From positions 19,377 through 83,376 of IMG/VR virus record IMGVR_UViG_3300017735_002163: a DNA stretch of 64,000 nt; one strand, 5' to 3'. Source of the stretch: a virus. Shown here piece after piece: positions 123 through 39,700 of this stretch. The translations under genes were made by a program, and so were the position numbers. Positions within the stretch are counted from its first letter, which is position 1. Each line of letters begins with the position of its first letter. The notes beneath the pieces are model-generated. The model made no database searches and was not told where the DNA came from. It was given only the letters and a program-made list of their open reading frames with translations.

Positions 123-134
123 GTTATGTACAAA

Positions 135-212: not shown

Positions 213-336
213 CATTGCTTTCTACTCTGGCTCTATTTAGTTTATGTAGGTCCAAGAGCTGTTGACCTGCCATTTGTTTTTGTTGTTTAAAGTCTGTACA
301 AAACGAGCGTCAATACGCAAAAATCAGACTATAGTA

Positions 337-411
337 TGGTACTCCGTAGGAGGATCGAACTCCTATTGCTGAGATGAAAACCCAGTGTCCTAACCATTAG
401 ACGAACGGAGC
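337..411 (-). tRNA. tRNA-Glu (TTC)
   Basis: Minus-strand cloverleaf with acceptor GCTCCGT/ACGGAGT (one G-T pair), anticodon stem CTGGG/CTCAG around loop TTTTCAT (anticodon TTC), T-loop AGTTCGATCCT and an encoded CCA. It is the first tRNA of the cluster when read from the promoter near 662-689. Confidence 0.94.
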
Positions 412-20719: not shown

Positions 20720-21258
20720 ATTTTTAACCTATAATCTATTAGTCCTGTTATTTGCATTGTATACCTTGGTATATAACCTAAGTTTGCAACCGTGTGTATT
20801 ACGCCAGGGAAAATAAAAGTATAATCCCCTTTGTTATAGTTATCAAAAGACTCGTCATCTATATTTAACCAATGTCCGAGTTGATGATCTTGCAAGAATA
20901 TATTTATTCTAACAAGTTCTAAATTTTCTAAAGTATCTTGATTATCTTTCAAGTATTGCTTTAGTCTATACATCGAATCCACATGTGGTGGAATAAATGT
21001 TCCTGTTGTTAATTTGTTTAAAGTAATTTGTTTGTGTTGTACCCAATCAAACTTATTACAAACATCCATAGCCCACTGTGGGCAGTCTTCTCCAAAGCAC
21101 TGATATAAATGTGCAGAACCTATTGGATATGTTGGTTCAGGTACATCTAAAGTTTTCCATAAACCGTTTGCTTCATCGGTGTCTGTGCTTTCAGGGAAAA
21201 CAGTATTGTTAAGCATTTCGTCGGTGACAAAATCAATATTAACATTACCTTTAATCAC
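20716..21258 (-). CDS. 2OG-Fe(II) oxygenase-like (aspartyl hydroxylase/cupin type)
   Basis: 180 aa with a double-stranded beta-helix pattern. IPPHVDSMYRLKQYL gives the first metal motif H-x-D, GDYTFIFPGVIHTVANLGYI the distal His, and the following PRYTMQITG an Arg where 2-oxoglutarate is usually bound. Between them, LVRINIFLQDHQLGHWLNID forms the core strands. It resembles the small 2OG hydroxylases found in marine phage genomes. The start is GTG at 21258, overlapping the amidinotransferase gene by 8 nt. It may hydroxylate the product of this operon or an unrelated protein. Confidence 0.72.
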   Translation of the reverse strand: MIKGNVNIDFVTDEMLNNTVFPESTDTDEANGLWKTLDVPEPTYPIGSAHLYQCFGEDCPQWAMDVCNKFDWVQHKQITLNKLTTGTFIPPHVDSMYRLKQYLKDNQDTLENLELVRINIFLQDHQLGHWLNIDDESFDNYNKGDYTFIFPGVIHTVANLGYIPRYTMQITGLIDYRLKI

Positions 21259-22303
21259 AATAACTCTCTAAGCCTCCTCTTCTTCGAAGGTCGAGTGTAG
21301 CACAATGTATGCCTCCACTTAAAGTCATTGCATGTCTAAATTGAACTGGAACACAATCAATATTATGTTTTTCAAGTTCTCTCATTAATGGCTCTTGCCC
21401 TGAATCACATATAACTGTGTTAGGATCAACACTCAATATGTTCATGCCAATATATGGTGAACAAGGATCTGGATAACCTTTAATTGCATTACCTCTGGTA
21501 ACACAATCATCAAAGTATATCTTATCCCATGACTTAAACATTTCAGGACAGTTGTCAGGTGTTACCCTTGCACTGTTTAATAAAACCAAGCCTGGTCTTA
21601 GTGGTATAATAGTGCTGTCAAAATGTGCAAAACTATATAGTTCACTGTAATGTAATTTATATCCCATTGGTTCAAGAAAACGTTTTAACCACTTATAGCC
21701 TTTCATGTTACCTGAATTACTTACTTGGTATAATAAATCTTTGCCTACTCTAACTATGTTAGGTGCATCAAATATGATTTCGTGATCTAATAATGTAGGT
21801 TTGCCAATTATATCTTCAAATTGATACAAGTCATCATGTAACTTAGGTCTCGGTGCTTGTAACCACATGGCACCATCTTCGAATGCTTCATACATGATGT
21901 CTTCGTATAACCTGTTTTCAAAATATCTTGCTCGAACAGGACTTGGTGTTTCAATCAACATGTCACCTAACGGCAATATGCAATCACGTGGACACCAACT
22001 ATACCAGCCTTTGCTTTTCCAACCTTGGCCTATGTCGTATTCTACGTTTTCCCAGTCGATAATTTTAGGTCTATGCACTTTAACACCCATTTTTGTGAGT
22101 GTGTTTGCAAGACCATCTGCGTCTTCATTGGCTTCGTCTATTACCCATTGTGGGTAAGGACCTGCCGGAGGTAATTCTTCGGGAGTTAATGTTGCATATC
22201 CAAAACTATTAGCACTTCTGTCTGTTGCTATTCTGCTGTGATGGGCATGTCCAACAATAATTTCTTCTAACGGGTCCCAGTCATTGTGTGTGTTAACTAT
22301 CAT
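21251..22303 (-). CDS. glycine amidinotransferase-family enzyme
   Basis: 350 aa. Transfers the amidino group of arginine to an amine, giving a guanidino product and ornithine. The whole active-site set is visible: the early motif WCPRDCILPLGD, DAPNIVRVGKDLLYQ with the catalytic Asp region, FAHFDSTIIPLRPGLVLLN with the catalytic His, and SGGIHCATLDLRRRG with Cys334 as nucleophile. The C-terminal end closely resembles animal and bacterial glycine amidinotransferases, and the family also includes the streptomycin enzymes that make guanidino-inositols. It has a leaderless-type late box. The amine acceptor is unknown; glycine is only one possibility. Confidence 0.9.
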   Translation of the reverse strand: MIVNTHNDWDPLEEIIVGHAHHSRIATDRSANSFGYATLTPEELPPAGPYPQWVIDEANEDADGLANTLTKMGVKVHRPKIIDWENVEYDIGQGWKSKGWYSWCPRDCILPLGDMLIETPSPVRARYFENRLYEDIMYEAFEDGAMWLQAPRPKLHDDLYQFEDIIGKPTLLDHEIIFDAPNIVRVGKDLLYQVSNSGNMKGYKWLKRFLEPMGYKLHYSELYSFAHFDSTIIPLRPGLVLLNSARVTPDNCPEMFKSWDKIYFDDCVTRGNAIKGYPDPCSPYIGMNILSVDPNTVICDSGQEPLMRELEKHNIDCVPVQFRHAMTLSGGIHCATLDLRRRGGLESYCD

Positions 22304-22308
22304 GCTAC

Positions 22309-22316
22309 TATTTATT
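22309..22316 (-). promoter_or_regulatory. late box AATAAATA, 5 nt before ATG (leaderless type)
   Basis: AATAAATA-GTAGC-ATG on the minus strand, partly overlapping the stop codon of the aminotransferase-like gene. It provides a second late start inside the biosynthetic operon. Confidence 0.68.
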
Positions 22317-23191
22317 TAACAATCGCTCATAAAGTCTGAAATACAGACTCTAAAATTACCAGGAACGCCTCTGGAATACATGTAATGTCTTTCTTCGTCA
22401 CCTAAACCAAATAACAGGGTATCGGTGTATACTAAATTTTCTGCTTCACACACTCTTTCATATTCTTTGCCGTGTTTATTCCAATTCCAATCAGGATCAA
22501 AGTGTTTCATAAAGTGTACACCTAAGTTCATGCTTGTTTTATTTTGGTAACCAACATCGTTGATCATTGTAACACCGTCATCAGTTGGTTTTCTTGAGAA
22601 TCGAATACCAACTCTGTGTGTTTCAAGAGGGAAAAAAGGCTTGCTAAGACTGAATACAACTTCTTCTATGCATGGATATTTGTCTAAGTCTATGTGTATG
22701 TTCTTACATATACCCCAATATGCTAAGTCTAAGCACACAGGTATATCTAATGTACAACATATACGCATCATGCGTTCAAATTCAGGGTGCATACAACCAA
22801 AGTCACTAAATGGTGCTGATATAATTAATGCATTCAGTCCTCTACCGACAAATCTGTCAGAGTTTACATCATCTATGTAAGCAAAATCTACATGTTTACC
22901 TTGGCATGCATGATATTGGAAGTCGCCAAGTAATGCATTTATTTGTCTTGTTTTACAATGGCGCAAAATAAAATTATCAAAGGCCTGACTTGTGCCTTGT
23001 GTATAATGTGCTGTGGGAAAGTTATCAAGACCTTCTATAGATTTCATGTCAGTGTAATTAATCCACTCTCTCCATGTGTCTTCATATTCAGACATTGTTA
23101 CTTCTGCAGGGGTAGTGTTCTCATAAAAATCTAAAAGTTCTTTACTGCGTACCGGCCTTGCGCCTTTTTGGTATAACTTGTGTTGCATCAT
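22316..23191 (-). CDS. fold-type I PLP aminotransferase-like protein
   Basis: 291 aa (288 if the second ATG at 23188 is used). It resembles a compact class I/II aminotransferase: YTQGTSQAFDNFILRH near residue 64, NALIISAPFSDFG followed by IPVCLDLAYWGIC with the Asp that pairs with the pyridine nitrogen, and EEVVFSLSKPFFPLETHRVG with the candidate Schiff-base Lys in SLSKPF. Usual enzymes are 350-420 aa, so this is a reduced version. It is the first gene of the five-gene operon and has a late box 5 nt before the ATG. It would supply the amine that the amidinotransferase could modify. Confidence 0.7.
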   Translation of the reverse strand: MMQHKLYQKGARPVRSKELLDFYENTTPAEVTMSEYEDTWREWINYTDMKSIEGLDNFPTAHYTQGTSQAFDNFILRHCKTRQINALLGDFQYHACQGKHVDFAYIDDVNSDRFVGRGLNALIISAPFSDFGCMHPEFERMMRICCTLDIPVCLDLAYWGICKNIHIDLDKYPCIEEVVFSLSKPFFPLETHRVGIRFSRKPTDDGVTMINDVGYQNKTSMNLGVHFMKHFDPDWNWNKHGKEYERVCEAENLVYTDTLLFGLGDEERHYMYSRGVPGNFRVCISDFMSDC

Positions 23192-27456: not shown

Positions 27457-29514
27457 TTATTTACTTGTAGCAATAAATATTCCATCCCAATCTTTTGGAA
27501 GTGTTTGAGTCTTTTGAAATTCGCAACGCTCAATCCACATATCATAATAACCTTTCATCTTGCCATCAAAATGCGTCTCTAATAATTTACACAATTTAAT
27601 TGCTCTATCAAACTCTTGGTTTCTATAATGTGTATGCATTGCATTATGCATCTCTTTAGACTTAGCATGTTTATCTGCTTTATAATCAAGCACAGTGTAT
27701 ATTTCAATGCCTATTGTTTTACCTTTAACTGCCAAGTCATCAACTTTTAAATAAAAGAATTCGTTTTTAGTTTTGTGATATGTACTACCACCGACTAATA
27801 GTAAGCACCCGTATTCCTTACACTTAGACTCAATTCGTGCGGCAGTTGATACAGCATCTCCAAGTACATCATAACTATGTCTGCTTGTAGAGCCCATCTC
27901 ACCGAGATAACCAACGCCAGTGTTAATGCCAGCCCCCATACCAATTGGAGGTCTTCCTTCTGCTGTGATCTTATCATTAAATTTCTCCACTGCTCTCAGC
28001 ATATCCAAACCTGTTTGCACTGCTGAGTGTTCATGCTTTGCATCATCGTTTGGTGCATTGTGTATATGCATACTTGCATCACCTATGTACTTGATAATCA
28101 TACCGTCTGCATCAAGTACAGGTTGTGTGATAGCATCCATATAACCATTCATTAGTTTTGTGAGTCCTTGTACATCATCTCCAAAACTTTCACCTAATGG
28201 TGTGAAGCCACGCAAGTCTGAGAAGCATATTGATATCTCTCGCTTCATGCCTTCTTTGATCAATGCAGGATTTTCTTGTAACATACGCACAACTGTGGGT
28301 GAACAATATCCTGCAAATTGCTTTTCTATTTCTTGTCTTAATTTAAACTGTATCCAGAAGTTGTTAAAACTTGCCTGTGTAAATATTAAAAATGTTGCTA
28401 TTGCAGGATATGTAGCATCAAATAAAACTAAGTTTGCTGTATAAGAATGTATAGTATAATAAGCAATAGACCCTATAATGCTTATTATACTAAACAATCC
28501 TGCCCATACAGGCAACTTGTATATTGCTAAAGCAACTAATACCATGCTCAACAACGCACACACAAGCTCTGTAAGCGACGATAATTCTGATCTGGTAATG
28601 TTACTCCCATCTATAAAATTCTGTAGCATGTGTGCTTGTATATGCTGTGGATATATGTTGCCTATCGGAGTGGGCACCGGATTGGCAACACCTTCTGCAC
28701 TCACACCCACTATGACGAACTTGCCGCCCATATTCGGTAAACTGTCTGCACCAGTGTATTCTATTTCTTCGAATGTATTATTAAAACGTATGTATGCTGT
28801 TCCATCGCCTTGTGTTACTACAGGAACAAATGGTGGTATAGCAAATTCTTGTATTCCTATCTCACTTGTTTTAATCATGTAACTGGGTTGACCAGTTTGC
28901 ACTCTTAACATTTCAATTGCAAACGAAGGATATATTTTATCCGCTACTGTGATTGCAAGTGGGTATGTTCTTGTTTGATTATCTGGTTGTGGTGCTGATG
29001 CATTAATACCAATACCAGATGCTACTGTTTCCAACTCTGCTATATTTGTTACCAGATTTTTCCAAGTCAATAAGTGTTGCTGAGCCGGGCTCGGGCCTAT
29101 TGTACCAGTCCCTATATGCGGGCCGGAACTCCTCACCCCTTTGGAACTTGGGGTCTGGGATAAAACTATTCCGTTTCCTTTTATCCATGATGCAAAGACT
29201 TCGTCTCCTCCAAAACGATCTACTTCAGGGAACATTAATGTAAAACCTACTATCCCTTGATTTTTTTGTCTTATGTCGTATATCATTTGTGCATAAGACT
29301 GCCTGGGAAATGGATACTGGCCTAAAGCATCTAAACTTTTTTCACCGAGATTAATTATAACTACTTCGTTACTTTGTTTTGTTTCGTCAAGTTGTTGGTA
29401 ATAATCAAATGTCTGCGAACGCAAACTTTGTAGTGGTGTAGGATCTGATATTCTCAAACCAAGTAATAAGCATATTGTTACTGCTACTGCCCAGCCGCTG
29501 TATAACCATTTCAT
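27457..29514 (-). CDS. CHASE2-domain class III adenylate cyclase
   Basis: 685 aa: N-terminal membrane anchor (WLYSGWAVAVTICLLLGLRI), an extracytoplasmic CHASE2 sensor domain to about residue 300 (SLRSQTFDYYQQLDETKQ, PFPRQSYAQMIYDIR, GKFVIVGVSAEGVANPVPTP), two or three membrane helices at about 310-390, then the cyclase domain at about 425-610. ICFSDLRGFTPL and IIKYIGDASM give the two metal Asp residues. Lys in IIKYIGD and Asp in SYDVLGD predict ATP as substrate. The usual Asn of GDxVNxAxR is Ser here (GDAVSTAARIE), though the Arg is kept, so activity may be reduced. It probably senses the periplasm and makes cAMP; partner candidate is the FecR protein. Confidence 0.9.
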   Translation of the reverse strand: MKWLYSGWAVAVTICLLLGLRISDPTPLQSLRSQTFDYYQQLDETKQSNEVVIINLGEKSLDALGQYPFPRQSYAQMIYDIRQKNQGIVGFTLMFPEVDRFGGDEVFASWIKGNGIVLSQTPSSKGVRSSGPHIGTGTIGPSPAQQHLLTWKNLVTNIAELETVASGIGINASAPQPDNQTRTYPLAITVADKIYPSFAIEMLRVQTGQPSYMIKTSEIGIQEFAIPPFVPVVTQGDGTAYIRFNNTFEEIEYTGADSLPNMGGKFVIVGVSAEGVANPVPTPIGNIYPQHIQAHMLQNFIDGSNITRSELSSLTELVCALLSMVLVALAIYKLPVWAGLFSIISIIGSIAYYTIHSYTANLVLFDATYPAIATFLIFTQASFNNFWIQFKLRQEIEKQFAGYCSPTVVRMLQENPALIKEGMKREISICFSDLRGFTPLGESFGDDVQGLTKLMNGYMDAITQPVLDADGMIIKYIGDASMHIHNAPNDDAKHEHSAVQTGLDMLRAVEKFNDKITAEGRPPIGMGAGINTGVGYLGEMGSTSRHSYDVLGDAVSTAARIESKCKEYGCLLLVGGSTYHKTKNEFFYLKVDDLAVKGKTIGIEIYTVLDYKADKHAKSKEMHNAMHTHYRNQEFDRAIKLCKLLETHFDGKMKGYYDMWIERCEFQKTQTLPKDWDGIFIATSK

Positions 29515-29519
29515 AGTTA

Positions 29520-29527
29520 TATTTATC
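29520..29527 (-). promoter_or_regulatory. late box GATAAATA, 5 nt before ATG (leaderless type)
   Basis: GATAAATA-TAACT-ATG on the minus strand before the cyclase gene at 29514. The cyclase is therefore predicted to be made late in infection. Confidence 0.7.
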
Positions 29528-29534
29528 GTAAATA

Positions 29535-30251
29535 TCAGTCAGCAAATGCTCGTTCGAGCATGAAGTCGCCCATTTCGCCAGTGTTTCCTTCTTCCCAATT
29601 TAAATATGAAAAACGCTCTCTGCATTCTTTATTAAGTGAGGGAGAACCGCAAACCATAACAGCATCAGTTTCTTTGGTTAAAGGTGAACCGAGAACTGGT
29701 TCAATGTGATTCCAAAACCTGCCTTGCCTAAAATAGTTTTCTCTGGTTACAGAAGGAATGTATAAAAATGGCATCATACCTGATATATCTTCCATGCTGT
29801 CCTTGTATGTAAGTTCTGCTACTTCTCTTACAGTGTGGAACAAATAGACGTTGTCGAACCTATCGTATGTTGCAGGGTCTTTAGCAATGCTTACAAACGG
29901 TGCTATGCCTGTTCCTGTTGCTAACATTACTAAATTCTTTTTGGGTAATAAGTAATCACAAACTAAACTACCTGTAGTTTTTGGACCTACTAATATATCG
30001 TCACCTATTTTAATATTTTGCAATTTACTTGTGAGAGGGCCATCTTGAACTTTAATACTGAGGAACTCTAAGTGGTCATCATAATTAGTGCTTACAATAC
30101 TGTATGCTCTCATTATTTTTTTAGGTTCGAGCTCTAATCCTATCATAGCAAACTCTCCGTTTTTAAAACGGAAGGTTTTATCTCTTGTAGTTTTAAAAGA
30201 AAATAAGCGATCGCTGTAGTGTGTGATTTCAGTAACTTGCTCTTTATTCAT
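29535..30251 (-). CDS. ferredoxin/flavodoxin-NADP reductase
   Basis: 238 aa from the ATG at 30251; a longer frame from 30284 would read through the late box. It has the FAD motif RAYSIVS near residue 50, the NADP-binding GTGIAPF near 110, the CGSP motif (VMVCGSPSLNKECRERF) and the short C-terminal tail MLERAFAD of bacterial Fpr-type enzymes. It exchanges electrons between NADPH and ferredoxin or flavodoxin. No ferredoxin gene is visible in the window, so it would use a host partner. Possible uses are radical SAM and oxygenase chemistry or host redox control. Confidence 0.9.
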   Translation of the reverse strand: MNKEQVTEITHYSDRLFSFKTTRDKTFRFKNGEFAMIGLELEPKKIMRAYSIVSTNYDDHLEFLSIKVQDGPLTSKLQNIKIGDDILVGPKTTGSLVCDYLLPKKNLVMLATGTGIAPFVSIAKDPATYDRFDNVYLFHTVREVAELTYKDSMEDISGMMPFLYIPSVTRENYFRQGRFWNHIEPVLGSPLTKETDAVMVCGSPSLNKECRERFSYLNWEEGNTGEMGDFMLERAFAD

Positions 30252-30256
30252 GTAGA

Positions 30257-30264
30257 TATTTATT
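30257..30264 (-). promoter_or_regulatory. late box AATAAATA, 5 nt before ATG (leaderless type)
   Basis: AATAAATA-TCTAC-ATG on the minus strand. It fixes the FNR start at 30251. Confidence 0.7.
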
Positions 30265-30265
30265 A

Positions 30266-30784
30266 CTATCTGTTCTTGGAGCATTCTTTTCTGGCACGAC
30301 TCCAGACATGAAAATTGTTTGCCACAATAGCGGCCATAAAATAATTTGCACCAGCGAAATCCTCGTCTGTTAAAACAGTTCGTTTGGTACCGATAAACAT
30401 AGCCGGTATTATAACTACTGATTTTAAAAATACTATTTCATGTAACTCAGGCTTTTTATCCAGTAGCGGATTTGCTTCCTCAATACAATCATACTTTACT
30501 GCTTCAACTGTGTTGTATATATCTAACAACTGAAATGCTGTAAACATTGCCCAGGATAATGGCGAAGCAGGTTCTTTCAGTGGTGGTAGATCTAAAGTGA
30601 TGGCTGGCGGGTATTCGTATTCGAATGTTGCTTGTCGAACTTCCGCTAAAACTTCTTTGCTATAGCAACACCCATGGCCATTGTTTATAAAAAATATTTG
30701 CTCAGGAGAAAGATTTGCTGGGAGATCTGTTGCGTAACAGTTAAGAGAAAGTAGCGACAACATAATCATTGCCGCTAATTTCAT
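30266..30784 (-). CDS. secreted/membrane protein resembling DUF5658-type proteins, unknown
   Basis: 172 aa from the ATG at 30784, which has AAGGAG 8 nt upstream; a GTG further upstream is less likely. A signal peptide (KLAAMIMLSLLSLNCYA) is followed by a periplasmic part with a Cys pair (GHGCCYSKE) and a hydrophobic part with AFQLLDIYNTVEAVKYDC, EEANPLLDKKPELHEIVFLK and VVIIPAMFIG. The D..NT....EANPLL pattern recalls DUF5658-like membrane proteins, but the match is by eye. Its start codon overlaps the end of the -1 frame extension described at 30784-30903 (TAATG). Confidence 0.65.
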   Translation of the reverse strand: MKLAAMIMLSLLSLNCYATDLPANLSPEQIFFINNGHGCCYSKEVLAEVRQATFEYEYPPAITLDLPPLKEPASPLSWAMFTAFQLLDIYNTVEAVKYDCIEEANPLLDKKPELHEIVFLKSVVIIPAMFIGTKRTVLTDEDFAGANYFMAAIVANNFHVWSRARKECSKNR

Positions 30785-30903
30785 TATTCGCACTCCTTAG
30801 GATTACTCGAACAATAGTCTTTAATTTGTTTTATTAACATTTTAATATCATCCTCATTGTCCTGCTTATCTTTGCGATTAGATAACAGGCTTAATCCTTT
30901 TTT
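30784..30903 (-). CDS. candidate -1 frameshift extension of the lipoprotein gene
   Basis: Near its end the lipoprotein frame reads CCA AAA AAG, that is A AAA AAG, the classic -1 slippery heptamer (30903-30897). Slipping there opens 37 further codons ending at TAA 30786-30784: GLSLLSNRKDKQDNEDDIK.. to CSSNPKECE. The frame has no ATG, GTG or TTG before its middle and a TGA closes it just upstream of the slippery site. Its stop overlaps the next gene's ATG as TAATG and contains that gene's ribosome site, which is the normal geometry of translated neighbours. Alternatively only the last 18 codons (from an internal ATG) are translated, or the site is chance. Confidence 0.4.
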   Translation of the reverse strand, partial: KKGLSLLSNRKDKQDNEDDIKMLIKQIKDYCSSNPKECE

Positions 30904-31175
30904 GGTGCTTCTGGTTCTTTTTGTAGTTCGTCAGTTTGTTTGTCAACTTCGGTTGCGACAGTTTCTACAACACCTTGTGCAGTGTTAATAGTTACGTCTG
31001 CAATTGCTTTTGCATCGTTAGTTACTGCAACTGCCATTGTGGCGGCTCCGCCAACAACGCTGTCCACAGTACCTGTGACAATCTCTGTTCCTGCATTCCA
31101 GGCCCCTCCAACTGAGGCGCACCCTACAGTGCCTAAACAAAGTACCGCTACGAAGAACTTAATATGTGTATTCAT
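30891..31175 (-). CDS. small lipoprotein of the curli-linked block
   Basis: 94 aa from the ATG at 31175, which has GGAG 6 nt upstream; an upstream start at 31199 lacks a ribosome site. The signal FFVAVLCLGTVGC ends in a lipobox with Cys19 as lipidated residue. The mature part has alternating small residues (GTEIVTGTVDSVVGGAATMA, VTNDAKAIADVTINTAQGV) typical of short amphipathic outer-membrane lipoproteins, then a charged Glu/Lys tail. The end carries a slippery A-run. No family name is assigned. Confidence 0.7.
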   Translation of the reverse strand: MNTHIKFFVAVLCLGTVGCASVGGAWNAGTEIVTGTVDSVVGGAATMAVAVTNDAKAIADVTINTAQGVVETVATEVDKQTDELQKEPEAPKKD

Positions 31176-31221
31176 ATTATCTCCATGGTTAAATAGCATG
31201 CCAACTGCAATGCTACACTAT

Positions 31222-31229
31222 TATTTATC
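31222..31229 (-). promoter_or_regulatory. late box GATAAATA before the lipoprotein gene
   Basis: GATAAATA on the minus strand 47 nt before the ATG at 31175, in the gap after the 102-aa membrane gene; the leader contains a GGAG ribosome site. Confidence 0.6.
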
Positions 31230-31235
31230 TGAAAG

Positions 31236-31544
31236 TTAGATGCCGTGGCTGTTAAAAGGACGATCTCCTGCTAAACTGTGTTGATCGTGTAGGTGTAATT
31301 CGTAGGCCAAGATATCTTTGGTATTTTGGCAGTCGGTAGTGTGCAGTAGTTTTAATATTTCCATTCTGTTTGCTTCTTCTATTTGATGTACTACGTCACA
31401 CCACATATAAAATACTGCAAATATACTTGGCACAATGATAATATAAAATACTAACCATGGGAAAAAGAAAGTGATAATTAAAACGTGTACGCCTATGACT
31501 GATAGTGAATATATCTTGAGACTATTGAGCCATTTACTTAGCAT
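31236..31544 (-). CDS. small inner-membrane protein, unknown
   Basis: 102 aa. The N-terminal half is one or two membrane helices (SLSVIGVHVLIITFFFPWLV, FYIIIVPSIFAVFYMW); the C-terminal half is soluble and His-rich (ILAYELHLHDQHSLAGDRP). The start overlaps the preceding small gene by 11 nt, indicating coupling. No family is recognised. Neighbouring genes suggest an envelope role connected with the curli-like module or the cyclase. Confidence 0.6.
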   Translation of the reverse strand: MLSKWLNSLKIYSLSVIGVHVLIITFFFPWLVFYIIIVPSIFAVFYMWCDVVHQIEEANRMEILKLLHTTDCQNTKDILAYELHLHDQHSLAGDRPFNSHGI

Positions 31545-31701
31545 CGACCTTCAGGTTTAGTTGTTCTATGTATGCATTGCTGTGCCAATAAGTATCTAAC
31601 ACAATGTCAGCCACAAGAGCAATTAACACCAATGTTAGTATTACAGAAAGGTATAGGTTTATACCCGCAGATATTTTTAACCACTTAATCATATGCTTCA
31701 T
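31534..31701 (-). CDS. small single-span membrane protein, unknown
   Basis: 55 aa from the ATG at 31701 (MKHMIKWLKISAGINLY), with one hydrophobic helix (LSVILTLVLIALVADIVLD) and a short polar tail ending LNLKVDAK. A longer frame from 31737 would pass through the sigma70 promoter and is rejected. The ATG follows TATAAT by 7 nt, so translation would be leaderless, or would use the second ATG at 31692. Function unknown. Confidence 0.55.
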   Translation of the reverse strand: MKHMIKWLKISAGINLYLSVILTLVLIALVADIVLDTYWHSNAYIEQLNLKVDAK

Positions 31702-31708
31702 AGGATAT

Positions 31709-31737
31709 ATTATAGTTGATATTGTAGGACTTGTCAA
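31709..31737 (-). promoter_or_regulatory. consensus sigma70 promoter inside the curli block
   Basis: Minus strand TTGACA (31737-31732), 17-nt spacer, TATAAT (31714-31709), perfect in both hexamers. It lies right after the second curlin gene and drives the small membrane protein genes, and perhaps the lipoprotein, from host sigma70. Confidence 0.88.
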
Positions 31738-31743
31738 CCGGTT

Positions 31744-32631
31744 TTAATTGCTACCGTTTACTGTTACTGAACATCCTGCTGTGTTATAACATACACCTGT
31801 TATACTGTAACTGCCGGCCGATGATGTCATGTTTTGATCTAAGTCAAGTGTGTAAGCACCAGTACCGTATGTTAAATCAATTGCCGCTGTTGCGTTATTG
31901 CCACCACGTTGATTAACATCAACACTATGCCCGTCACCATCTAACACAATGTCTGCCCATTTAACACCACCGTTGCCTCGTTGATATAACACCACATCAT
32001 TGTAATCACCTGTTATCTCTATAAAGCCATCGTGTCCTGATTTGCCTAACTGCCTGTGGTCTACATCATTGTAGTCACCTGTTATAATGTTTGCCAAATG
32101 ATGAGGACCTGCGTTAGTACCGCCTGACGATCTGTTAGTATCTGTTTGGCTACTTGCTAAAGTATTGTTGGAGCCATCTATGGTCCAATATGCTTCGTGG
32201 CCGCCTTCTTCGTCTATGTCAAGATTGCCTGTTAAATGTTTACCTTGCCACACTTTGAGATCATTATTACTACCAGTTGCATCTACTTTTGCAAAGTTAT
32301 CGTTGCCGCCATTGCCTTGAAATAAATCAAACGTGTTGTTACTGCCATTTAAGTTACCTTCAAATAAATGACTGTAGCCTTGCTGATAAAATGTTAAGTT
32401 ATTAGACGCACCAAGTAATTGACTATTGATGTCTATGCCTTGGATTACATTGTCGTATCCATCTTGTGTTACCGTTAGAGTAAGATTGTCACCTGCTTGG
32501 TCAATGAGAATAATGTTGTCTGCATTTGCTGTCATAGGCATTAATAAAAACATGCCCAGTATAATATATCCCAATACTAAAAGAGGGGTATCTTTTGGTT
32601 TCATTTCGTTTAGTTTTTTATCTATGTTCAT
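31744..32631 (-). CDS. curlin-repeat (CsgA/CsgB-like) secreted protein
   Basis: 295 aa. After an N-terminal hydrophobic signal (LLVLGYIILGMFLLMPMTANA) come seven or more imperfect repeats of the curlin type, with the Q-x-G(-x)-N signature: LTVTQDGYDN, NLTFYQQGYSH, FDLFQGNGGND, LKVWQGKH, VVLYQRGNGG, VDVNQRGGNN. Spacing is about 22-45 residues, somewhat irregular compared with E. coli CsgA. Such repeats form amyloid fibre strands. The C-terminus has two cysteines (GVCYNTAGCSV), unusual for curlins. It belongs to the same transcript as the CsgG and CsgF genes and is the likely secreted substrate. Confidence 0.8.
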   Translation of the reverse strand: MNIDKKLNEMKPKDTPLLVLGYIILGMFLLMPMTANADNIILIDQAGDNLTLTVTQDGYDNVIQGIDINSQLLGASNNLTFYQQGYSHLFEGNLNGSNNTFDLFQGNGGNDNFAKVDATGSNNDLKVWQGKHLTGNLDIDEEGGHEAYWTIDGSNNTLASSQTDTNRSSGGTNAGPHHLANIITGDYNDVDHRQLGKSGHDGFIEITGDYNDVVLYQRGNGGVKWADIVLDGDGHSVDVNQRGGNNATAAIDLTYGTGAYTLDLDQNMTSSAGSYSITGVCYNTAGCSVTVNGSN

Positions 32632-32632
32632 A

Positions 32633-33820
32633 TTAACCTTGTGTTTGTCTTATGTATATATTTATACCTGAACAATCATTTACACATATAACGTTAGTTC
32701 TATTCTCTATGTCTGTTTCAAGTCTTGCATTACTGCCAACTGGCACTTTAACACTGATAGTACCATTAACTTCTCTGTAGAACCATATAAATCCAGAACG
32801 ATCTATTATGGTATTAAATTGTGTTTTTGGATCAAACCCTGATGCTAATGTACCTGTTATTATATCAACGCCTTGTTGTCCTTCTGTTTTTTCTGACAAC
32901 ACTGCAAGTTTATCTGCTTCGTCTAATATTTCTAATAAATCCTGTAAAAAATCAACACCTAATATGTCAACATCTAATTCACTGAATTCTAAGTCTATGC
33001 TATCTTCATTTTGATCGTCGAGCAAATTTTCTTCTAAGAAATCTATATCGAGATCACTGAATGCTAAGTAGTCAATGCCCTTTCTTGCTTCTATTTGTTG
33101 TTCTTCTGCTTCTGTGATTTCTGCTGGTTCACTTACAATAAACATGTTGTCTATCATATTTAAATTTAAATCTTGTATAACCACTGGCTGAGTTGGCGGT
33201 GTTTCAAACGTGCTTACCATTACTGCTTGATAGGCTTCTTCTAATACAACTGTTCCGCCATCATTAGTAACTGTGATAGCACCGGACGGTCTACACCCTT
33301 CTTCTAATTTTACCTTGTCTGTGCAATTTGCATCTGGCAATAGTATAACTAAACTCCTGCCTAATTCATCTACTGTGGTTGTAAAATCTGTTCCACGCAC
33401 ACCAATTGTTGCTGTGGGAGTTTGTATGGCTATGTTTTCTTTTGGTACAAGTCCTAATCCGCCTGTGGCAAATCTTGCTGTGCCTGACACAAAATTCATT
33501 GCCATTTTACTTTTGCTTGGATCGGGGTCGTAGACATACTCATTGATTACTATCAACGTATTTTCTGTCAGACTGACCTGTGTTTTATCTACGAATTCAA
33601 TTTTAAGTCTACCTGCTGTAGTTTCTACATTGTCCATACTAACAATTGTAGAATCTAAAACTGCAGACAGTTTTTCACCAGATGTTCGTTCTATACTACC
33701 CGGATTTCCAGTCTGCTCAAATACGCCGCCTATCCTTTCAGCGGCGCTTGAGTTAGACAAAAACGAAAACAGTACAACAAAACTAATCTTTCTGAGTAAT
33801 GCTAACTGTTGCGTTTTCAC
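32633..33820 (-). CDS. FecR-domain secreted protein
   Basis: 395 aa from a GTG at 33820 that overlaps the upstream curlin gene by 38 nt. A signal peptide (ISFVVLFSFLSNSSAAE) is followed by a FecR domain at about residues 35-200: GSIERTSGEKL, AGRLKIEFVDKTQVSLTENT, SGTARFATGGLG and IQTPTATIGVRGTDFTTTVD. The region after 210 is acidic (EENLLDDQNEDSIDLEFSE). FecR-type periplasmic proteins often occur beside CHASE2 cyclases or surface-fibre genes in bacteria. It could be a periplasmic sensor or scaffold linking curlin secretion with the cyclase, but there is no direct proof. Confidence 0.82.
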   Translation of the reverse strand: MKTQQLALLRKISFVVLFSFLSNSSAAERIGGVFEQTGNPGSIERTSGEKLSAVLDSTIVSMDNVETTAGRLKIEFVDKTQVSLTENTLIVINEYVYDPDPSKSKMAMNFVSGTARFATGGLGLVPKENIAIQTPTATIGVRGTDFTTTVDELGRSLVILLPDANCTDKVKLEEGCRPSGAITVTNDGGTVVLEEAYQAVMVSTFETPPTQPVVIQDLNLNMIDNMFIVSEPAEITEAEEQQIEARKGIDYLAFSDLDIDFLEENLLDDQNEDSIDLEFSELDVDILGVDFLQDLLEILDEADKLAVLSEKTEGQQGVDIITGTLASGFDPKTQFNTIIDRSGFIWFYREVNGTISVKVPVGSNARLETDIENRTNVICVNDCSGINIYIRQTQG

Positions 33821-34505
33821 TGTCTATATCTAAATCCATATGACCGTAGCATGAAGTTGCACCAGTGGCACATGTACCGGAACTTTGAATTAAATCAATG
33901 TCTCCGCCTGAACCGTCGTATACTACTTTCATGTACTGATCTGCACCATCAGTTTGGCTGGTTACAATATCGTTATTATCACCAGTTAGGTCAAAATTCC
34001 AAGTTGCATCATCGACTTCAATGTCAATGTCCCATACGTTGCTGTCACCTAAGATTGCTAAGTCGAAATCTAATCTTTCTGCACTTGCGGCTGATCCTAA
34101 GTCAAAGTCAAACGTATTTGAATCACCTTGAATTGTAGCGAGTATATTGCCTGTATCGGCTGAACCTGTGTCACCAACTTTGATGTCCCAGATATTACTG
34201 CTACCAGTAAAAGTCCAATCGTATGTACTGCTGTCTGCAGTTATACTACCAAAAAACTCATTACTGTTACCTATTTGGTCTAAATCGATATTCAATGATG
34301 AACCAACTATAGTTAGATCACTACTTTGATCTGTATCGCCGGCTATCTTGTTACCAAAACCTTGTTGTAAAATAGTTAAATTCAGTGTGTCACCAACTTG
34401 ATCAATTAAGATTTCATTATCAGTTGCACCTGCTGAATAAACTGCTCCACTAAAGGTCATTAACCCTACTACCAAACTTAATGCTGATAAAGTTTTATTC
34501 AACAT
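33783..34505 (-). CDS. curlin-repeat (CsgA/CsgB-like) secreted protein
   Basis: 240 aa with a standard signal peptide (LSALSLVVGLMTFSGAVYSA). The mature part begins with a motif nearly shared with the second curlin protein (NEILIDQVGDTLNLTILQQG versus DNIILIDQAGDNLTLTVTQD). It then carries repeats such as LNIDLDQIGNSN, GDSNTFDFDLG, GDSNVWDIDIE and GDNNDIVTSQTDG. The protein is very acidic. Two cysteines (GTCATGATSC) lie near the end. The start overlaps csgG by 11 nt, so secretion pore and substrate are co-translated. It could be the nucleator or a second fibre subunit. Confidence 0.8.
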   Translation of the reverse strand: MLNKTLSALSLVVGLMTFSGAVYSAGATDNEILIDQVGDTLNLTILQQGFGNKIAGDTDQSSDLTIVGSSLNIDLDQIGNSNEFFGSITADSSTYDWTFTGSSNIWDIKVGDTGSADTGNILATIQGDSNTFDFDLGSAASAERLDFDLAILGDSNVWDIDIEVDDATWNFDLTGDNNDIVTSQTDGADQYMKVVYDGSGGDIDLIQSSGTCATGATSCYGHMDLDIDSENATVSITQKD

Positions 34506-35412
34506 TTGTTTCTCCTATGTTTAAATTTTCTACAGGTGGGAGACTTTCAGCATCATTGCTGGTAATCGTCCAGTAACCTCTATCGTCACCTTGTTCGATG
34601 AGTGCAAGTACTGCCGCTTCCGTGGCGCTCCTTACTGCCCATGTCACACTTTCGTTAGAAGTAATTCCTGTTTCTAATTCTAATAATTTTGTATCCATGT
34701 CAAGAAAACGAAATACATCTCCTCCCATGCCTACACTAAGTATTGTCTTGTATGTCTGTACGTTAAGTATAACTTCGCCTGTTAAAGTACTAACAGCACG
34801 TAGACTAACAATAATGCTGTCTCGTCTGTATTGAGCACTTCCGCCGATACCTAAATATCTGGCTCCGTTACCTCCTGTTTCTATGTTACTATCGTACCCA
34901 ACTATACCGCCTTCAAGTAAAATACCCGCAAACAACATTGGTTGTAGTTTTTGGCTCTCTTTACCTGCTTTGGCATAATCGTCTCTGGTACTGCGGATAA
35001 TTTGTCTTTCTCTGACCAGGTTATCCAGACCTACTCCTCTTTCAACAACACGGAACCAAGTACCGTTTGCAGTCTCACCTGCGCCTGCCGCCTTAAGAGC
35101 ATCAATTAACAATGCTTTTGCACCCTGCGTTACTGCTGTGCTGAACAATGCTATATTGTCTTTTTGTTTTCTTTGACCTGTTAAGTCAGAGAACTGATAT
35201 ACTGCAACCACAGGCATTACTTCTGCAGGTGGTAACTGTCTTAATCTTTCATATGTTGGTAATTCGACTTGTTTTGGTTCTTCGACACACTCCATTACAT
35301 TGTCGTAACACCACTCGCCTGTTAATGCATTATTAGGCAATGACATTGATGCACACCCCGACATTATCGTGCTAAAAAGTAGTGTAGCAATTAGCGAACT
35401 ATAACTTTTCAT
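34495..35412 (-). CDS. csgG: CsgG, curli secretion channel lipoprotein
   Basis: 305 aa. A lipoprotein signal ends in MSGC with Cys20. The CsgG fold is unmistakable: VVAVYQFSDLTGQRK, ALFSTAVTQGAKALLIDALK, RVVERGVGLDNLVRERQIIR, GILLEGGIVGYDSN, GGNGARYLGIGGSAQYRRDS, VSTLTGEVILNVQTYKTIL, VFRFLDMDTKLLELETGI and ALIEQGDDRGYW. It forms the nonameric outer-membrane pore of type VIII secretion. Compared with E. coli, the constriction segment differs: Phe56 is kept in ALFSTAV, but Tyr51 and Asn55 are replaced and there is one extra residue. Confidence 0.95.
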   Translation of the reverse strand: MKSYSSLIATLLFSTIMSGCASMSLPNNALTGEWCYDNVMECVEEPKQVELPTYERLRQLPPAEVMPVVAVYQFSDLTGQRKQKDNIALFSTAVTQGAKALLIDALKAAGAGETANGTWFRVVERGVGLDNLVRERQIIRSTRDDYAKAGKESQKLQPMLFAGILLEGGIVGYDSNIETGGNGARYLGIGGSAQYRRDSIIVSLRAVSTLTGEVILNVQTYKTILSVGMGGDVFRFLDMDTKLLELETGITSNESVTWAVRSATEAAVLALIEQGDDRGYWTITSNDAESLPPVENLNIGETNVE

Positions 35413-35418
35413 ATTGTC

Positions 35419-35961
35419 TTATCCGCCGCCGATGGCAACTCCTACAGGTATATCTATTGTAGTCATTGTTCCGTCTGAGCTTACAATGGTTAGCCTAATT
35501 ATTTCTATGCCGTCATCTCCAACCATTCTTTCGTATGTGACTGTATTTCCTTCGATAGTGAACACACCATAGTCTGCTCCGTCTTCGTTACCGAACATAC
35601 TGTCTACTAACTGTCTACTAATTTGACTGTAAATTCTACTTTCTAAATTTCTCAAAAATTTATTAAGTGTTGAATTTTCTTCTTCACGCTGAATTCTTAA
35701 TAGCTCAGCGTCTATTTGATCTTTAATTTTGTCTTTACGACTTTTTTGTTGATTCTCAATGGTTAGGTAATGGGCGCCTGTTCCTACACCACTGAAACTT
35801 GGATTTTTAAATTTATGTACTAATTCGTCTGCTAATGCTAACGGACTCATGAATAATAGTCCTAACATTATACCGAATGCAAATGCTTTGAATAAATCAC
35901 TACCAGACCATATACGTGGTCCTACTTGCGATTTAAGTAACTCCCAATCTTTATCTCTCAT
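35419..35961 (-). CDS. csgF: CsgF-like curli assembly factor
   Basis: 180 aa from the ATG at 35961, which has AGAGGT upstream. A long N-region leads to the signal FAFGIMLGLLFMSPLALA. The mature start ELVHKFKNPSFSGVGTGAH matches E. coli CsgF (F-x-N-P-x-F), the segment that inserts into the CsgG constriction. LESRIYSQISRQLVDSMFG and FTIEGNTVTYERMVGDDGIE correspond to the C-terminal helix and strands. CsgF in E. coli exposes the nucleator at the cell surface. An extra charged insert (KSRKDKIKDQIDAELLRIQR) has no counterpart in E. coli. It is 6 nt upstream of csgG. Confidence 0.85.
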   Translation of the reverse strand: MRDKDWELLKSQVGPRIWSGSDLFKAFAFGIMLGLLFMSPLALADELVHKFKNPSFSGVGTGAHYLTIENQQKSRKDKIKDQIDAELLRIQREEENSTLNKFLRNLESRIYSQISRQLVDSMFGNEDGADYGVFTIEGNTVTYERMVGDDGIEIIRLTIVSSDGTMTTIDIPVGVAIGGG

Positions 35962-36268
35962 CTGTCTGTACCTCTGACTGTAGTGTGGCAAGAGCCTCTT
36001 TTTGCTTGGCTTCTTTTATTACCTTCTGTCTTTCTTTGTATTCTAAAACTACATTTACTTTTTGCTGTAGTCGTATCATATCCTGATCAAGCATTCGTGT
36101 TTGATCAATTACACGTATTAATGCCATATGCATTGTTTCTAATTCGGGGTCTATTTTCTCACCTATAAACCACCAAACATAATATATAAAATATCCTAAT
36201 CCTACACAAAGTACTATTGGAAAGCCAAATGTGTTAATTGCTTCAGCAATTCCATTCACATCTTCCAT
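35951..36268 (-). CDS. small membrane protein with coiled coil, holin-like
   Basis: 105 aa: one N-terminal membrane helix (FPIVLCVGLGYFIYYVWWFIG), then a coiled coil (MALIRVIDQTRMLDQDMIRL) and a charged Lys/Glu tail. The start is coupled to the preceding gene by TAATG with GGAGAG upstream; the end overlaps the CsgF start by 11 nt. Size and topology suit a class III-type holin or spanin-related protein, but also a membrane partner of the curli module. The phage lysozyme needs a holin and no other candidate is seen in this window. Confidence 0.6.
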   Translation of the reverse strand: MEDVNGIAEAINTFGFPIVLCVGLGYFIYYVWWFIGEKIDPELETMHMALIRVIDQTRMLDQDMIRLQQKVNVVLEYKERQKVIKEAKQKEALATLQSEVQTDER

Positions 36269-36564
36269 TAGTCTCTCCTTGCATCAATTTTGTTATCTTC
36301 TACAAAATTTTCTGCTCGTGCTACTCTGTCGATGTCAGGGCTTAGTTCAAGAGCACTACTTACAAGCAAGTCAATTTTCATCATCTCATTGCTCATTGTT
36401 CTGGCTCGATTTTCTAAACTATTACAAAATATAGTTAGAGTTTTTATTTGCCCTACTATGCCTTCAAGTATTTGTTTGATAACAAGGAATATGAAAAAAC
36501 CCATTACCATACTGCCGGCAATTGGTGCTCCAACTTCTGCTATTAATCCAAAAATTTCATTCAT
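36268..36564 (-). CDS. small membrane protein, holin-like
   Basis: 98 aa: an N-terminal membrane helix (APIAGSMVMGFFIFLVIKQIL), then an amphipathic coiled coil (LENRARTMSNEMMKIDLLVS) and a charged end. It has the same architecture as the next gene, with which it is translationally coupled, so the two may be paralogues working as a pair. It is the first gene after the late box at 36672-36679. Function is inferred from topology only. Confidence 0.6.
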   Translation of the reverse strand: MNEIFGLIAEVGAPIAGSMVMGFFIFLVIKQILEGIVGQIKTLTIFCNSLENRARTMSNEMMKIDLLVSSALELSPDIDRVARAENFVEDNKIDARRD

Positions 36565-36757: not shown

Positions 36758-39700
36758 TTATTGTAAGTTGATTAATGCTTCAACAACACCGTTACCATCT
36801 TCGTTTTCGCTAATTGCTTTACCGATGATTGTACCTGACTTAACGTTTTCTGGGTCAGCGCCTTTGGCTCTACCTGGAATACCTGATGTTACAAGTAAGT
36901 CACCTTTGCCAATTGGACCAACAACTTTAACTGGTACCCTTCCGCATAATGCTACTGGAGTTCCACCTGCTAATTCACTGTTCATCAAGTATGCTGGGTC
37001 TGTGGAAACAACACCTGCTACACGGTAATCTTCATCACCTGCACATTCTGTTATTTCTGCATCGCCACCAAACACAACAACTGTACCTGCATCATACACT
37101 GCATCTGCTGAATAGTTCTCAGCCAAATCCGCATATCTTGCCGTTGTTGCTGTTGCACTAACTACGCCAGCACTAAAGTTACCGGAACCGTCTCTGGCAA
37201 CCACTGTACTTGCTGTATTGGCTGATGTTGCGTTAACATTTAATGTAGCACTACCACTTGATGCGCCACCTGTTAAGTATGAACCTGCCACAACTGCTGT
37301 AATATCACCTACGTTGCCTGTTAGTCCACTTATGCGTCCTGTTACGTGATCGTATACGTCATTACCTGTTGGTATTGATGTGCCGCCGTTTGCAACTGCA
37401 CCAGTAGAAACACTTAATGTAACACTACCACTTGAACCGCCGCCACTTAAATGTGTACCTGCTGTAACACCAGTGATGTCACCAACGTTACTTGTCCAAC
37501 CGGAGTCATTGTTAAACTGACTTAGTTTAAATTCACCAATTGCTTTCTTTCTCTCAGCGCCTGAATCAAGTAAAATAAGTTCGTCATTAGCACCGCTAAC
37601 ATCTGCTGTCATATCAGTAAGTTCTGATAAGTCTAAAGTGATGCTTGGTGTACCTGAAGTACCTCCGCCGTCTAAACCTGTACCTACTGTAATACCTGTT
37701 AAGTAACCAGTGTCTGTTAAACTAATAACACCTGTTGAGCTGTTATATGTAACACCAGTTCCACCACTAACTAATCCTCTAACATGTGAATCGCTTAGTG
37801 CTAAACTAACACTACCACTTGATCCACCGCCAGTTAAACCGTTACCAGCACTTACGTTTGTTATATCACCAACTGTTGTTGAGTAACCGTATGCTTCAAT
37901 CTTATCAGCAACTGCTTTTGCTGTCATTAACACTGTGTCTGAATCACTAAATGCTTCTGAACTTAATTGTATTGCCGCTCCAGCAAAGTCACCAACTGTT
38001 AAATCTGGTAGTCTTGCACTTGCAATAGTACCTGATGCTATTTGACTTGCACCAATTGATATTGAAACTTCGCCACTTGCAGTTAAACGTCCTTTTGCAT
38101 CAACTGTAAATGTTGATACTGTGCCAGCGTCACCAAATGATCCAACTGATGCGGCTGTATCTGCTAATGCTAAACTAACACTACCACTTGAACCACCACC
38201 TGTTAAACCTGAGCCTGCACTTACGTTTGTTATATCACCAACTGTTGTTGAGTAACCATAACTTAGAATTTTATCTTGTACTGCCGCCGATGTCATTAAT
38301 GTTGTATCGTTATCTGCAAAACTTTCTGTGCTTAACTGAATTGTTGCTCCTGCAAATTCACTAATTGTTAAACCACTTACGTTTAATGTTGCTGTACCAC
38401 TTGTAGCACCGCCACTTAAACCAGTTCCTGCTACTACACCAGTAATAAAGTTTGGATCTGTTAGACTGATTACACCACTTGATAAAGTAATACCAGCACC
38501 ACCACTAAAGTGATTTCTAACTTGTGCCGCACTTGGACCTGTGTAACTAATAACACCTGTTGTGCTGTTGTATGCTAATGCACCATCACCACCGTTATCT
38601 GTTACAGAGATAGCACCTCTGGCGTCTGCGTCTGCATACATTGTAGGCTCACTATAACTTATAACACCTGTTGTGCTGTTATATGCTAAGTCACCACTTG
38701 CACTAATTGCCGCTCTTGCTCTTGCAGTTGTATGGTATTGATTAGTACCTTCTGATAAATTACTTGTGCTGTGATTAGCAATACTGCTAACTGTACCAGT
38801 TACATCACCAGTTACATCACCAGTTACATCACCAGTTACATTACCAACTACTGCGCCTCTAAATGTTGTAGCAACAAAATCTGTTGATACTGCCCATCTG
38901 TCGTTTGACTCGTCCCATAGTAACTGTACATTTGTAGCATCACCACGTTCAATTTCAATACCTGCATTGGCTGTAGGGGAACCTGATGCATTGTTGTTTA
39001 GAACGATGATGTTGTCATCAACTGTTAAAGTTTCTGTATTAACAGTAGTTTGTGTACCGTTAATTGTTAAGTTACCATTAACTATAATGTTGTCACTAAA
39101 TGTTTTAGCACCTGCTACTGTTTGAGTACCACTTGTTCTAACTACAGTATTATCTACTGAGAATGAACCGGAACTAACATCTAAGCCGTCACCTGCTGAT
39201 ACATGTGCTCTAACTTGCGCCGCACTTGGACCTGTGTAAGTAATTACACCAGTTGAGCTGTTATAAGCAAGACTTCCGTCTCCGCCTGCGTCAGTAACAC
39301 TAATTGCACTTCTGGCATCTGCATCTGCATACATAGTTGGGGTTGTATAAGACATAACACCTGTTGTGCTGTTATATGCTAAGTTGCCACCTGCACTAAT
39401 TGAAGCTCTTGCTAATGCATCAGTATACTGAGTGATAGTTGTTGCAATAGCACCGTCTGTTACAGTAATACCTGTACCAGCACTAATATGAGCTCTTACT
39501 TCTGAAGCACTTGGGCCTGTGTAAGTAATAACACCTGATGTGCTGTTGTATGCCAATGATCCGTCACCACCTGCATCTGTTACACTAATTAATCCTTTTG
39601 CATAGCTCTCATCAAGTGATATTTCGTCTGCATCAACAGTAATACCGTTGCCTTCACCAATGTTTAATGTAACTGCACCTGCTGTGCCGCCACCTGTTAA

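What the first reader, a model, noticed from the sequence alone, without database searches (positions are those of the whole stretch)
27457..33820. FecR protein, cyclase and curlin genes form a possible sensing circuit
A secreted FecR-domain protein lies between the two curlin genes. The CHASE2 cyclase lies downstream on the same strand with a lipoprotein, small membrane proteins and an oxidoreductase. FecR-domain and CHASE2-cyclase genes are often neighbours in bacteria. The arrangement suggests that a signal from fibre secretion or envelope stress passes through FecR to CHASE2 and changes cAMP.
Basis: inference. Interest (0 to 1): 0.7.

Follow-up and report, generated by a model that had tools for sequence, protein, structure and literature searches.

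The report
Phage curli operon with sensor-cyclase pair
A marine jumbo phage carries genes for a bacterial surface amyloid fibre together with a periplasmic protein and a membrane enzyme that probably report on fibre export by making a cyclic nucleotide; the gene set is already known from other ocean phages, but the protein that seems to connect its two halves has an unreported fibre-like tail.

Summary
The minus strand reads two small membrane proteins, CsgF, CsgG, curlin, FecR-domain protein, curlin, variable cargo, then a CHASE2 class III cyclase. This set is not new: Wittmers 2022 (PMC9599517) reported CsgF-CsgG-curlin-FecR-curlin-cyclase in SAR11 phages, and it is in isolates HTVC008M and Melnitz. 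New here: (1) the carrier belongs to a jumbo-phage lineage (TerL 57% to PA5oct-type phages, 68% to a 340-kb contig with the same module); (2) the 'FecR' is not the iron sigma regulator but a secreted protein whose last ~62 residues are remotely homologous to curlin and whose final I-x-I-x-Q strand occurs in 132/134 relatives; (3) FecR sits beside CHASE2 in Alphaproteobacteria about 35 times more often than chance, with varied outputs; (4) the cyclase domain has been exchanged repeatedly, and one type carries a double active-site substitution absent from the nearest bacterial enzymes; (5) no carrier phage tested encodes a cNMP-binding protein, and 40 of 41 SAR11-family genomes lack one. The FecR-CHASE2 pairing is supported by association; contact, stimulus, product and target are not shown. 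Most likely FecR tethers fibre export to CHASE2 signalling; a purely structural FecR is the main rival.

The parts
36268..36564 (-). small one-TM protein (98 aa, PHROG 18771), first of a paralogous pair upstream of CsgF
   Evidence: homologue in 143 of 185 CsgF loci with room; 47% to HTVC008M, 46% to Melnitz
35951..36268 (-). small one-TM protein (105 aa, PHROG 18771), second of the pair
   Evidence: in 145 of 185 CsgF loci
35419..35991 (-). CsgF
   Evidence: PF10614 8e-16
34495..35412 (-). CsgG, outer-membrane curli pore, lipoprotein-like N-terminus
   Evidence: PF03783 3e-47
33783..34505 (-). curlin 1 (240 aa), ends TVSITQKD
   Evidence: PF07012 0.032, below cut-off; position-equivalent to the annotated curlins of Melnitz and HTVC008M
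32633..33820 (-). FecR-domain protein (395 aa), secreted
   Evidence: PF04773 6e-12; model; no TM beyond the signal peptide
33131..33739 (-). FecR domain, residues 28-230
   Evidence: PupR signalling domain Z 15.5; adhesin anchoring domain 5ix9 Z 6.6 over residues 27-125
32636..32845 (-). C-terminal beta domain of FecR, residues 326-395, curlin-like by profile comparison
   Evidence: pLDDT mostly 90-96; hhalign 77% probability to curlin-2 C-termini, at most 1.4% for controls against curlins
32645..32665 (-). terminal strand I-x-I-x-Q, residues 386-392
   Evidence: 132/134 FecRs against 27/1986 background ORFs; Q392 4.32 bits
31744..32631 (-). curlin 2 (295 aa)
   Evidence: PF07012 3e-7
29535..31737 (-). 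variable cargo: small membrane ORFs, lipoprotein, DUF5658-like protein, FAD/NAD oxidoreductase
   Evidence: differs between relatives; not counted as core module
27457..29514 (-). CHASE2 class III nucleotide cyclase (685 aa)
   Evidence: full-length PHROG 35576; pLDDT 89
28537..29478 (-). CHASE2 domain, residues 13-326, periplasmic between TM segments
27697..28245 (-). cyclase catalytic domain, type A (D433, K475, D479, D549, S556, R560)
   Evidence: Foldseek to CyaB 3r5g
27460..27696 (-). helical C-terminal extension of type A cyclases, ending DWDGIFIATSK
   Evidence: the same ending occurs in bacterial CHASE2 cyclases

Best explanation
A phage-borne curli (type VIII secretion) module with its own built-in periplasmic sensor pair. 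CsgG and CsgF make an outer-membrane pore through which two phage curlins leave the infected cell. The FecR-domain protein is a secreted adaptor with three parts: a FecR domain that resembles both FecR/PupR signalling domains and the surface-anchoring domain of a giant adhesin, an acidic linker, and a curlin-like C-terminal segment. Its curlin-like end engages the fibre or the pore while the FecR domain stays in the periplasm, where it is read by the CHASE2 domain of the inner-membrane cyclase, so that the state of fibre export sets cyclic-nucleotide synthesis. Shown: gene content, order, wide conservation, domains, intact metal and purine-binding Lys residues of the cyclase, conserved curlin-like FecR tail, FecR-CHASE2 neighbourhood in bacteria. 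Inferred: FecR-CHASE2 contact, engagement of the fibre or pore by the tail, the sign of the signal, the identity of the product, and its target in the host.
For: Order and co-occurrence in phages; the cyclase is retained even where it is inverted relative to the curli genes (L096, L105, L134). FecR within 5 kb of 39/114 alphaproteobacterial CHASE2 genes, about 1.1 expected, beside histidine-kinase, EAL, phosphatase and cyclase outputs, so the sensor pair is constant while the output varies. The FecR-CHASE2 cluster is also described in Campylobacterota (PMC9239204) and in a Burkholderia biofilm operon (PMC5192318). FecR tail: 132/134 against 27/1986, Q392 invariant, profile match to curlin 2, absent from the bacterial FecRs beside CHASE2. 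Precedent for an outer-membrane barrel feeding CHASE2 cyclases: NsrA in S. meliloti (PMC13001267). Cyclase type changes about 6 times on the CHASE2 tree.
Against: FecR-CHASE2 tree coupling beyond CsgF/CsgG falls from 0.45 to 0.22 with ML distances, and its excess over FecR-catalytic domain is not significant over all loci. Co-occurrence can reflect linkage. No cNMP receptor in the phages or in SAR11. In S. meliloti a FecR-domain protein controlled by cAMP was not needed for signal perception (PMC5498481). The fold of the FecR tail as a curlin solenoid was not shown; part of it (326-363) matches ordinary beta meanders.
Confidence: 0.42

Rival explanations
1. FecR is a structural part of the fibre: a periplasmic plug or anchor whose FecR domain is held inside while the curlin-like tail passes the pore and nucleates or caps the fibre. 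It does not signal; the cyclase is a separate neighbour.
For: FecR is tied to CsgG without exception in the sample (24/24 and 44/44), slightly more tightly than to the cyclase (37/39); it lies between and overlaps or abuts the two curlins; its tail is curlin-like; the N-terminal part resembles the cell-surface anchoring domain 5ix9 by fold (Z 6.6, 74 of 76 residues) and weakly by profile (E 0.1).
Against: Does not explain why FecR genes neighbour CHASE2 genes in bacteria that show no CsgG nearby, nor why the cyclase is kept even when inverted.
Confidence: 0.3
2. Linked cargo: the cyclase manipulates the host or counters a host defence independently, and travels with the curli genes only because of modular exchange between phages.
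For: Module moves between phage families (PMC9599517); variable cargo sits between curlin 2 and the cyclase; the type A active site is unusual.
Against: Near-fixed pairing over diverse phages and the general FecR-CHASE2 neighbourhood.
Confidence: 0.15
3. CsgG-CsgF serves as a lysis-timing pore or secretin rather than a fibre exporter (Buchholz 2022, PMC9004378).
For: Proposed for Melnitz on modelled CsgF differences and synteny; two small one-TM proteins with very weak holin-like hits precede CsgF.
Against: The argument rests on absent csgA/csgB, but Melnitz and HTVC008M carry two curlin-type genes each at fixed positions.
Confidence: 0.08
4. FecR acts as the iron-responsive sigma regulator of the FecIR type (suggested in PMC9599517).
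For: Only the PF04773 match.
Against: No cytoplasmic DUF4880 or C-terminal DUF4974 domain in 22 diverse members and no TM segment beyond the signal peptide.
Confidence: 0.02

Closest known systems
Pelagiphage type VIII secretion module (Wittmers 2022, PMC9599517; Zaragoza-Solas 2020, PMC7029224; HTVC008M; Melnitz)
   Same: Same genes in the same order: CsgF, CsgG, curlin, FecR, curlin, cyclase
   Different: Window phage is a jumbo lineage; no histidine kinase as in the podophages; extra cargo before the cyclase; those papers do not mention the CHASE2 domain or the FecR tail in the text searched
Bacterial FecR + CHASE2 signalling pairs (Campylobacterota PMC9239204; Burkholderia BiofilmReg PMC5192318)
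   Same: Secreted FecR-domain protein encoded beside a CHASE2 protein; cyclase output in Campylobacterota, histidine kinase output in a biofilm-controlling operon
   Different: Those examples are not in curli operons; bacterial FecRs seen here lack the curlin-like tail
NsrA - CyaD1/CyaD2/CyaK - Clr of Sinorhizobium meliloti
   Same: Outer-membrane barrel protein and CHASE2 cyclases in one cAMP pathway (PMC13001267)
   Different: Cognate CRP-type receptor Clr is known there; none found in carrier phages or SAR11
Surface-anchoring domain of the Marinomonas giant adhesin (5ix9)
   Same: Fold and weak profile match to the first part of the FecR domain
   Different: Different secretion route; shared anchoring function is inference only

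Membership tests
Curli / type VIII secretion system | CsgG pore and CsgF | tested here: met
   3e-47 and 8e-16
Curli / type VIII secretion system | Curlin-repeat fibre subunits | tested here: met
   curlin 2 3e-7; curlin 1 only 0.032 but equivalent in position and sequence to annotated phage curlins
Curli / type VIII secretion system | CsgE gate | tested here: inconclusive
   no CsgE match among ten module ORFs; rest of the genome not scanned; also reported missing in related phages (PMC9599517)
Curli / type VIII secretion system | Amyloid fibres formed in the infected cell | not testable with these tools
   needs microscopy or Congo red assay
FecR anti-sigma / sigma regulators | N-terminal cytoplasmic DUF4880 domain and a TM helix | tested here: not met
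FecR anti-sigma / sigma regulators | C-terminal DUF4974 domain that binds the receptor plug | tested here: not met
   not found in 22 members; a curlin-like segment instead
FecR anti-sigma / sigma regulators | Adjacent FecI-type sigma factor | not tested
   no sigma-factor profile was run
CHASE2 class III nucleotide cyclases | CHASE2 domain between TM segments, class III catalytic domain | tested here: met
CHASE2 class III nucleotide cyclases | Catalytic residues: two metal Asp, Lys, transition-state Asn and Arg | tested here: inconclusive
   Asp, Asp, Lys, Arg in 121/121; Asn replaced by Ser in type A, 65/121 including the window; bacterial neighbours keep Asn, 28/28; activity untested
FecR-CHASE2 sensor pair | FecR gene encoded near a CHASE2 gene | tested here: met
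FecR-CHASE2 sensor pair | Physical interaction | not testable with these tools
   co-folding of two chains not available; tree coupling weak
LapA-type retention module | Retention-domain fold | tested here: inconclusive
   Z 6.6 to 5ix9, profile E 0.1

The most novel reading that the evidence does not exclude
A phage-made transmembrane circuit in which a curlin-tailed FecR reports export of an amyloid fibre to a CHASE2 cyclase whose type A active site (Asp/Ser in place of the Ser/Asn of its bacterial relatives) makes a cyclic nucleotide other than cAMP, or acts on a receptor not yet recognised, in hosts that mostly lack cNMP-binding proteins.
Probability: 0.12. Interest if true: 0.85.

Novelty: new variant of a known kind. 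Interest (0 to 1): 0.55.

Why it matters
Curli modules are among the most widespread unexplained cargo of ocean phages, and the literature offers competing guesses (sibling capture, superinfection defence, uptake pore, lysis pore). The curlin-like tail on FecR and its partnership with CHASE2 turn these guesses into a testable mechanism with named parts: which protein links fibre to sensor, which residues to change, what product to measure. The missing cNMP receptor in SAR11 challenges the simple cAMP reading. A jumbo-phage carrier widens the known range of the module.

Tried and rejected
Iron or sigma-factor reading of FecR: rejected on domain content. SAR11 myophage identity of the window: rejected, TerL and a capsid-region protein point to PA5oct-type jumbo phages. 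Mirror-tree test of FecR-CHASE2: first looked strong (0.45) but weakened with FastTree distances (0.22; bootstrap interval of the difference from the catalytic domain includes 0 over all loci, excludes 0 within each cyclase type), so counted only as suggestive. A genome-contig scan with FecR gave 8 loci; seven (L243-L249) look like phage contigs or fragments binned into MAGs and were no use for bacterial origins. PDB searches gave no curlin match for the FecR tail; its coordinates could not be read, so solenoid versus meander is undecided. Searching for FecR pairs with near-identical sequence and swapped cyclase type found only two pairs, at 68% FecR identity. Two literature searches for SAR11 CRP and jumbo-phage curli gave nothing relevant. 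Oxidoreductase, lipoprotein and small membrane ORFs as circuit parts: set aside as variable cargo.
Full report
What is there. The region on the minus strand encodes, 5' to 3', two small one-TM proteins (36564-35951), CsgF (35991-35419), CsgG (35412-34495), curlin 1 (34505-33783), a FecR-domain protein (33820-32633), curlin 2 (32631-31744), a stretch of cargo (31737-29535: small membrane ORFs, a lipoprotein, a DUF5658-like protein, an FAD/NAD oxidoreductase) and a CHASE2 class III cyclase (29514-27457).

It is known. tblastn against phage records finds the cyclase, FecR and CsgG together only in Pelagibacter phage HTVC008M and the four Melnitz phages of OM43, apart from catalytic-domain matches in Acinetobacter phage records and one short unannotated CsgG record, in the same order. 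Wittmers et al. 2022 (PMC9599517) described the module CsgF-CsgG-CsgA/B-FecR-CsgA/B-adenylate cyclase in pelagiphages of two families, found it throughout the ocean virome and in metatranscriptomes, and proposed FecR and cyclase as regulators. Zaragoza-Solas 2020 (PMC7029224) and Buchholz 2022 (PMC9004378) discussed the pore genes. These papers do not mention the CHASE2 domain in the text searched. The two curlin-type genes of Melnitz and HTVC008M contradict the statement in PMC9004378 that Melnitz lacks fibre genes.

New carrier lineage. The terminase of the window phage is 57% identical to PA5oct-type jumbo phages of Pseudomonas, a capsid-region protein 34%, and 67-74% to contigs that also carry the module, including a 339,794-base contig with the same curli-FecR-cyclase arrangement. 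The other carriers tested are only 33-35% identical in terminase or show no match. So the module also lives in a jumbo lineage whose host is unknown. I found no paper on curli in jumbo phages.

Co-occurrence. Three scans of viral contigs with CsgG, cyclase and FecR gave about 240 loci. Nearly all show CsgF-CsgG-curlin-FecR-(curlin)-CHASE2 cyclase. With room to see, FecR follows CsgG in 24/24 loci and the cyclase in 23/24; FecR and CsgG accompany the cyclase in 43/44; CsgG accompanies FecR in 44/44; the cyclase follows FecR in 37/39. In three loci the cyclase is inverted relative to the curli genes yet retained.

FecR and CHASE2 in bacteria. In 115 genomes of the class of a Rhodospirillales genome, 52 have CHASE2. 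In 50 of these with FecR positions, 39/114 CHASE2 genes have FecR within 5 kb, 27 on the same strand; about 1.1 would be expected if FecR genes were scattered at random in genomes of mean size 3.8 Mb. Outputs next to FecR include histidine kinases, an EAL domain and class III cyclases, and one CHASE2 phosphatase gene also has FecR within 5 kb. No CsgG match of the same 50 genomes lies near a CHASE2 match. Independent reports place FecR beside CHASE2 cyclases in Campylobacterota (PMC9239204) and beside a CHASE2 kinase in a Burkholderia biofilm operon (PMC5192318). So the phages combine two bacterial units, curli export and FecR-CHASE2 sensing.

The FecR protein. It has a signal-peptide-like N-terminus, no further TM segment, and none of the flanking domains of FecIR-type regulators in 22 diverse members. 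AlphaFold with 105 homologues gives a confident FecR domain, a poorly ordered acidic helical linker, and a confident beta-rich C-terminal domain. The FecR domain matches PupR (Z 15.5) and, over residues 27-125, the cell-surface anchoring domain 5ix9 of a giant adhesin (Z 6.6, 74 of 76 residues; profile E 0.1). The last residues form the motif I-x-I-x-Q near the stop in 132 of 134 non-redundant phage FecRs, against 27 of 1986 background ORFs and 177 of 264 curlins. Q392 is invariant and I388 and I390 nearly so, in a part of the protein that is otherwise poorly conserved. Profile comparison aligns the last 62 residues with curlin-2 C-termini end to end (77% probability; controls 0.2-1.4%; curlin 1 against curlin 2 93.7%). 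Bacterial FecRs next to CHASE2 lack this tail. I infer that the tail docks FecR on the fibre or pore; the homologous sequences share ancestry, so the count shows conservation, not independent origin.

The cyclase. Both metal-binding Asp, the purine-binding Lys and the Arg are present in 121/121. There are two catalytic types. Type B keeps the bacterial S/T...N pattern. Type A, including the window and Melnitz, has D...S, that is Asp at the adenine-contact position and Ser for the transition-state Asn, in 65/65. The nearest bacterial catalytic domains have S/T...N in 28/28. Type changes about six times on the CHASE2 tree, against about 31 for shuffled labels. Type A may therefore have altered activity; this is untested.

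Test of coupling. FecR-domain and CHASE2 distances correlate beyond CsgF and CsgG (0.45 with p-distances, 0.22 with ML distances; permuted maximum 0.196), but the excess over FecR-catalytic domain is significant only within cyclase types. This is suggestive only.

Output problem. PF00027 was not found in the window's record or in 15 other carrier records, and occurs in 1 of 41 genomes of the family of a Pelagibacter MAG; class III cyclases occur in 2 of 41, one of which is a phage contig binned in the MAG. Thus for SAR11 carriers a CRP-type cAMP route has no visible receptor. This does not bear directly on the window's unknown host.

Mechanism and verdict. Best supported: FecR is a periplasmic tether between fibre export and a CHASE2 cyclase, comparable in logic to NsrA-CHASE2 signalling in S. 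meliloti (PMC13001267). Main rival: FecR is a structural anchor or nucleator and the cyclase is separate. The gene set is known; the curlin-tailed FecR, the CHASE2 partnership, the type A active site, the jumbo carrier and the absent receptor are what this work adds.

Noticed in passing
window 35951-36564: Two paralogous small one-TM proteins (PHROG 18771) directly upstream of CsgF in most module loci, as conserved as CsgG or more so; possible unreported core parts of the module.
   Followed up: partly
window 33783-33820: FecR start overlaps the curlin 1 end by 38 nt, so the bases that encode the curlin terminal strand also encode the start of the FecR signal peptide in another frame.
   Followed up: partly
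window FecR residues 250-300 (about 32921-33073): Conserved acidic repeats of the type LDxDFLxxDxL in the linker between FecR domain and tail; no explanation found.
   Followed up: no
L243, L244, L245, L246, L247, L248, L249: Contigs with the phage curli module sit in MAGs labelled Pelagibacter, Maricaulis, Neomarinimicrobiota, Pirellulales and Rhodobacteraceae, probably binned phage contigs; the Pelagibacter MAG's only class III cyclase comes from one.
   Followed up: partly
L104:5187-7951: CHASE2 cyclase with an upstream curlin but no FecR or CsgG in more than 5 kb upstream; the only such exception in the sample with room.
   Followed up: no
L009:14866-16935 and L015:6496-8523: Cyclases with T...N residues and a C-terminal ending EWDGVDRKTSK or DWDGVDRKTSK, apparently a third catalytic subtype.
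   Followed up: no
window 21251-23191: Neighbouring genes that look like an amidinotransferase and an aminotransferase-like enzyme, unusual phage cargo.
   Followed up: no
window 36758-41041: 1427-aa ORF with repeated VTDAGGDGSLAYNS-type units, probably a tail fibre protein.
   Followed up: no
window 47-411: Three tRNA genes (Asp, Val, Glu) at the window start.
   Followed up: no
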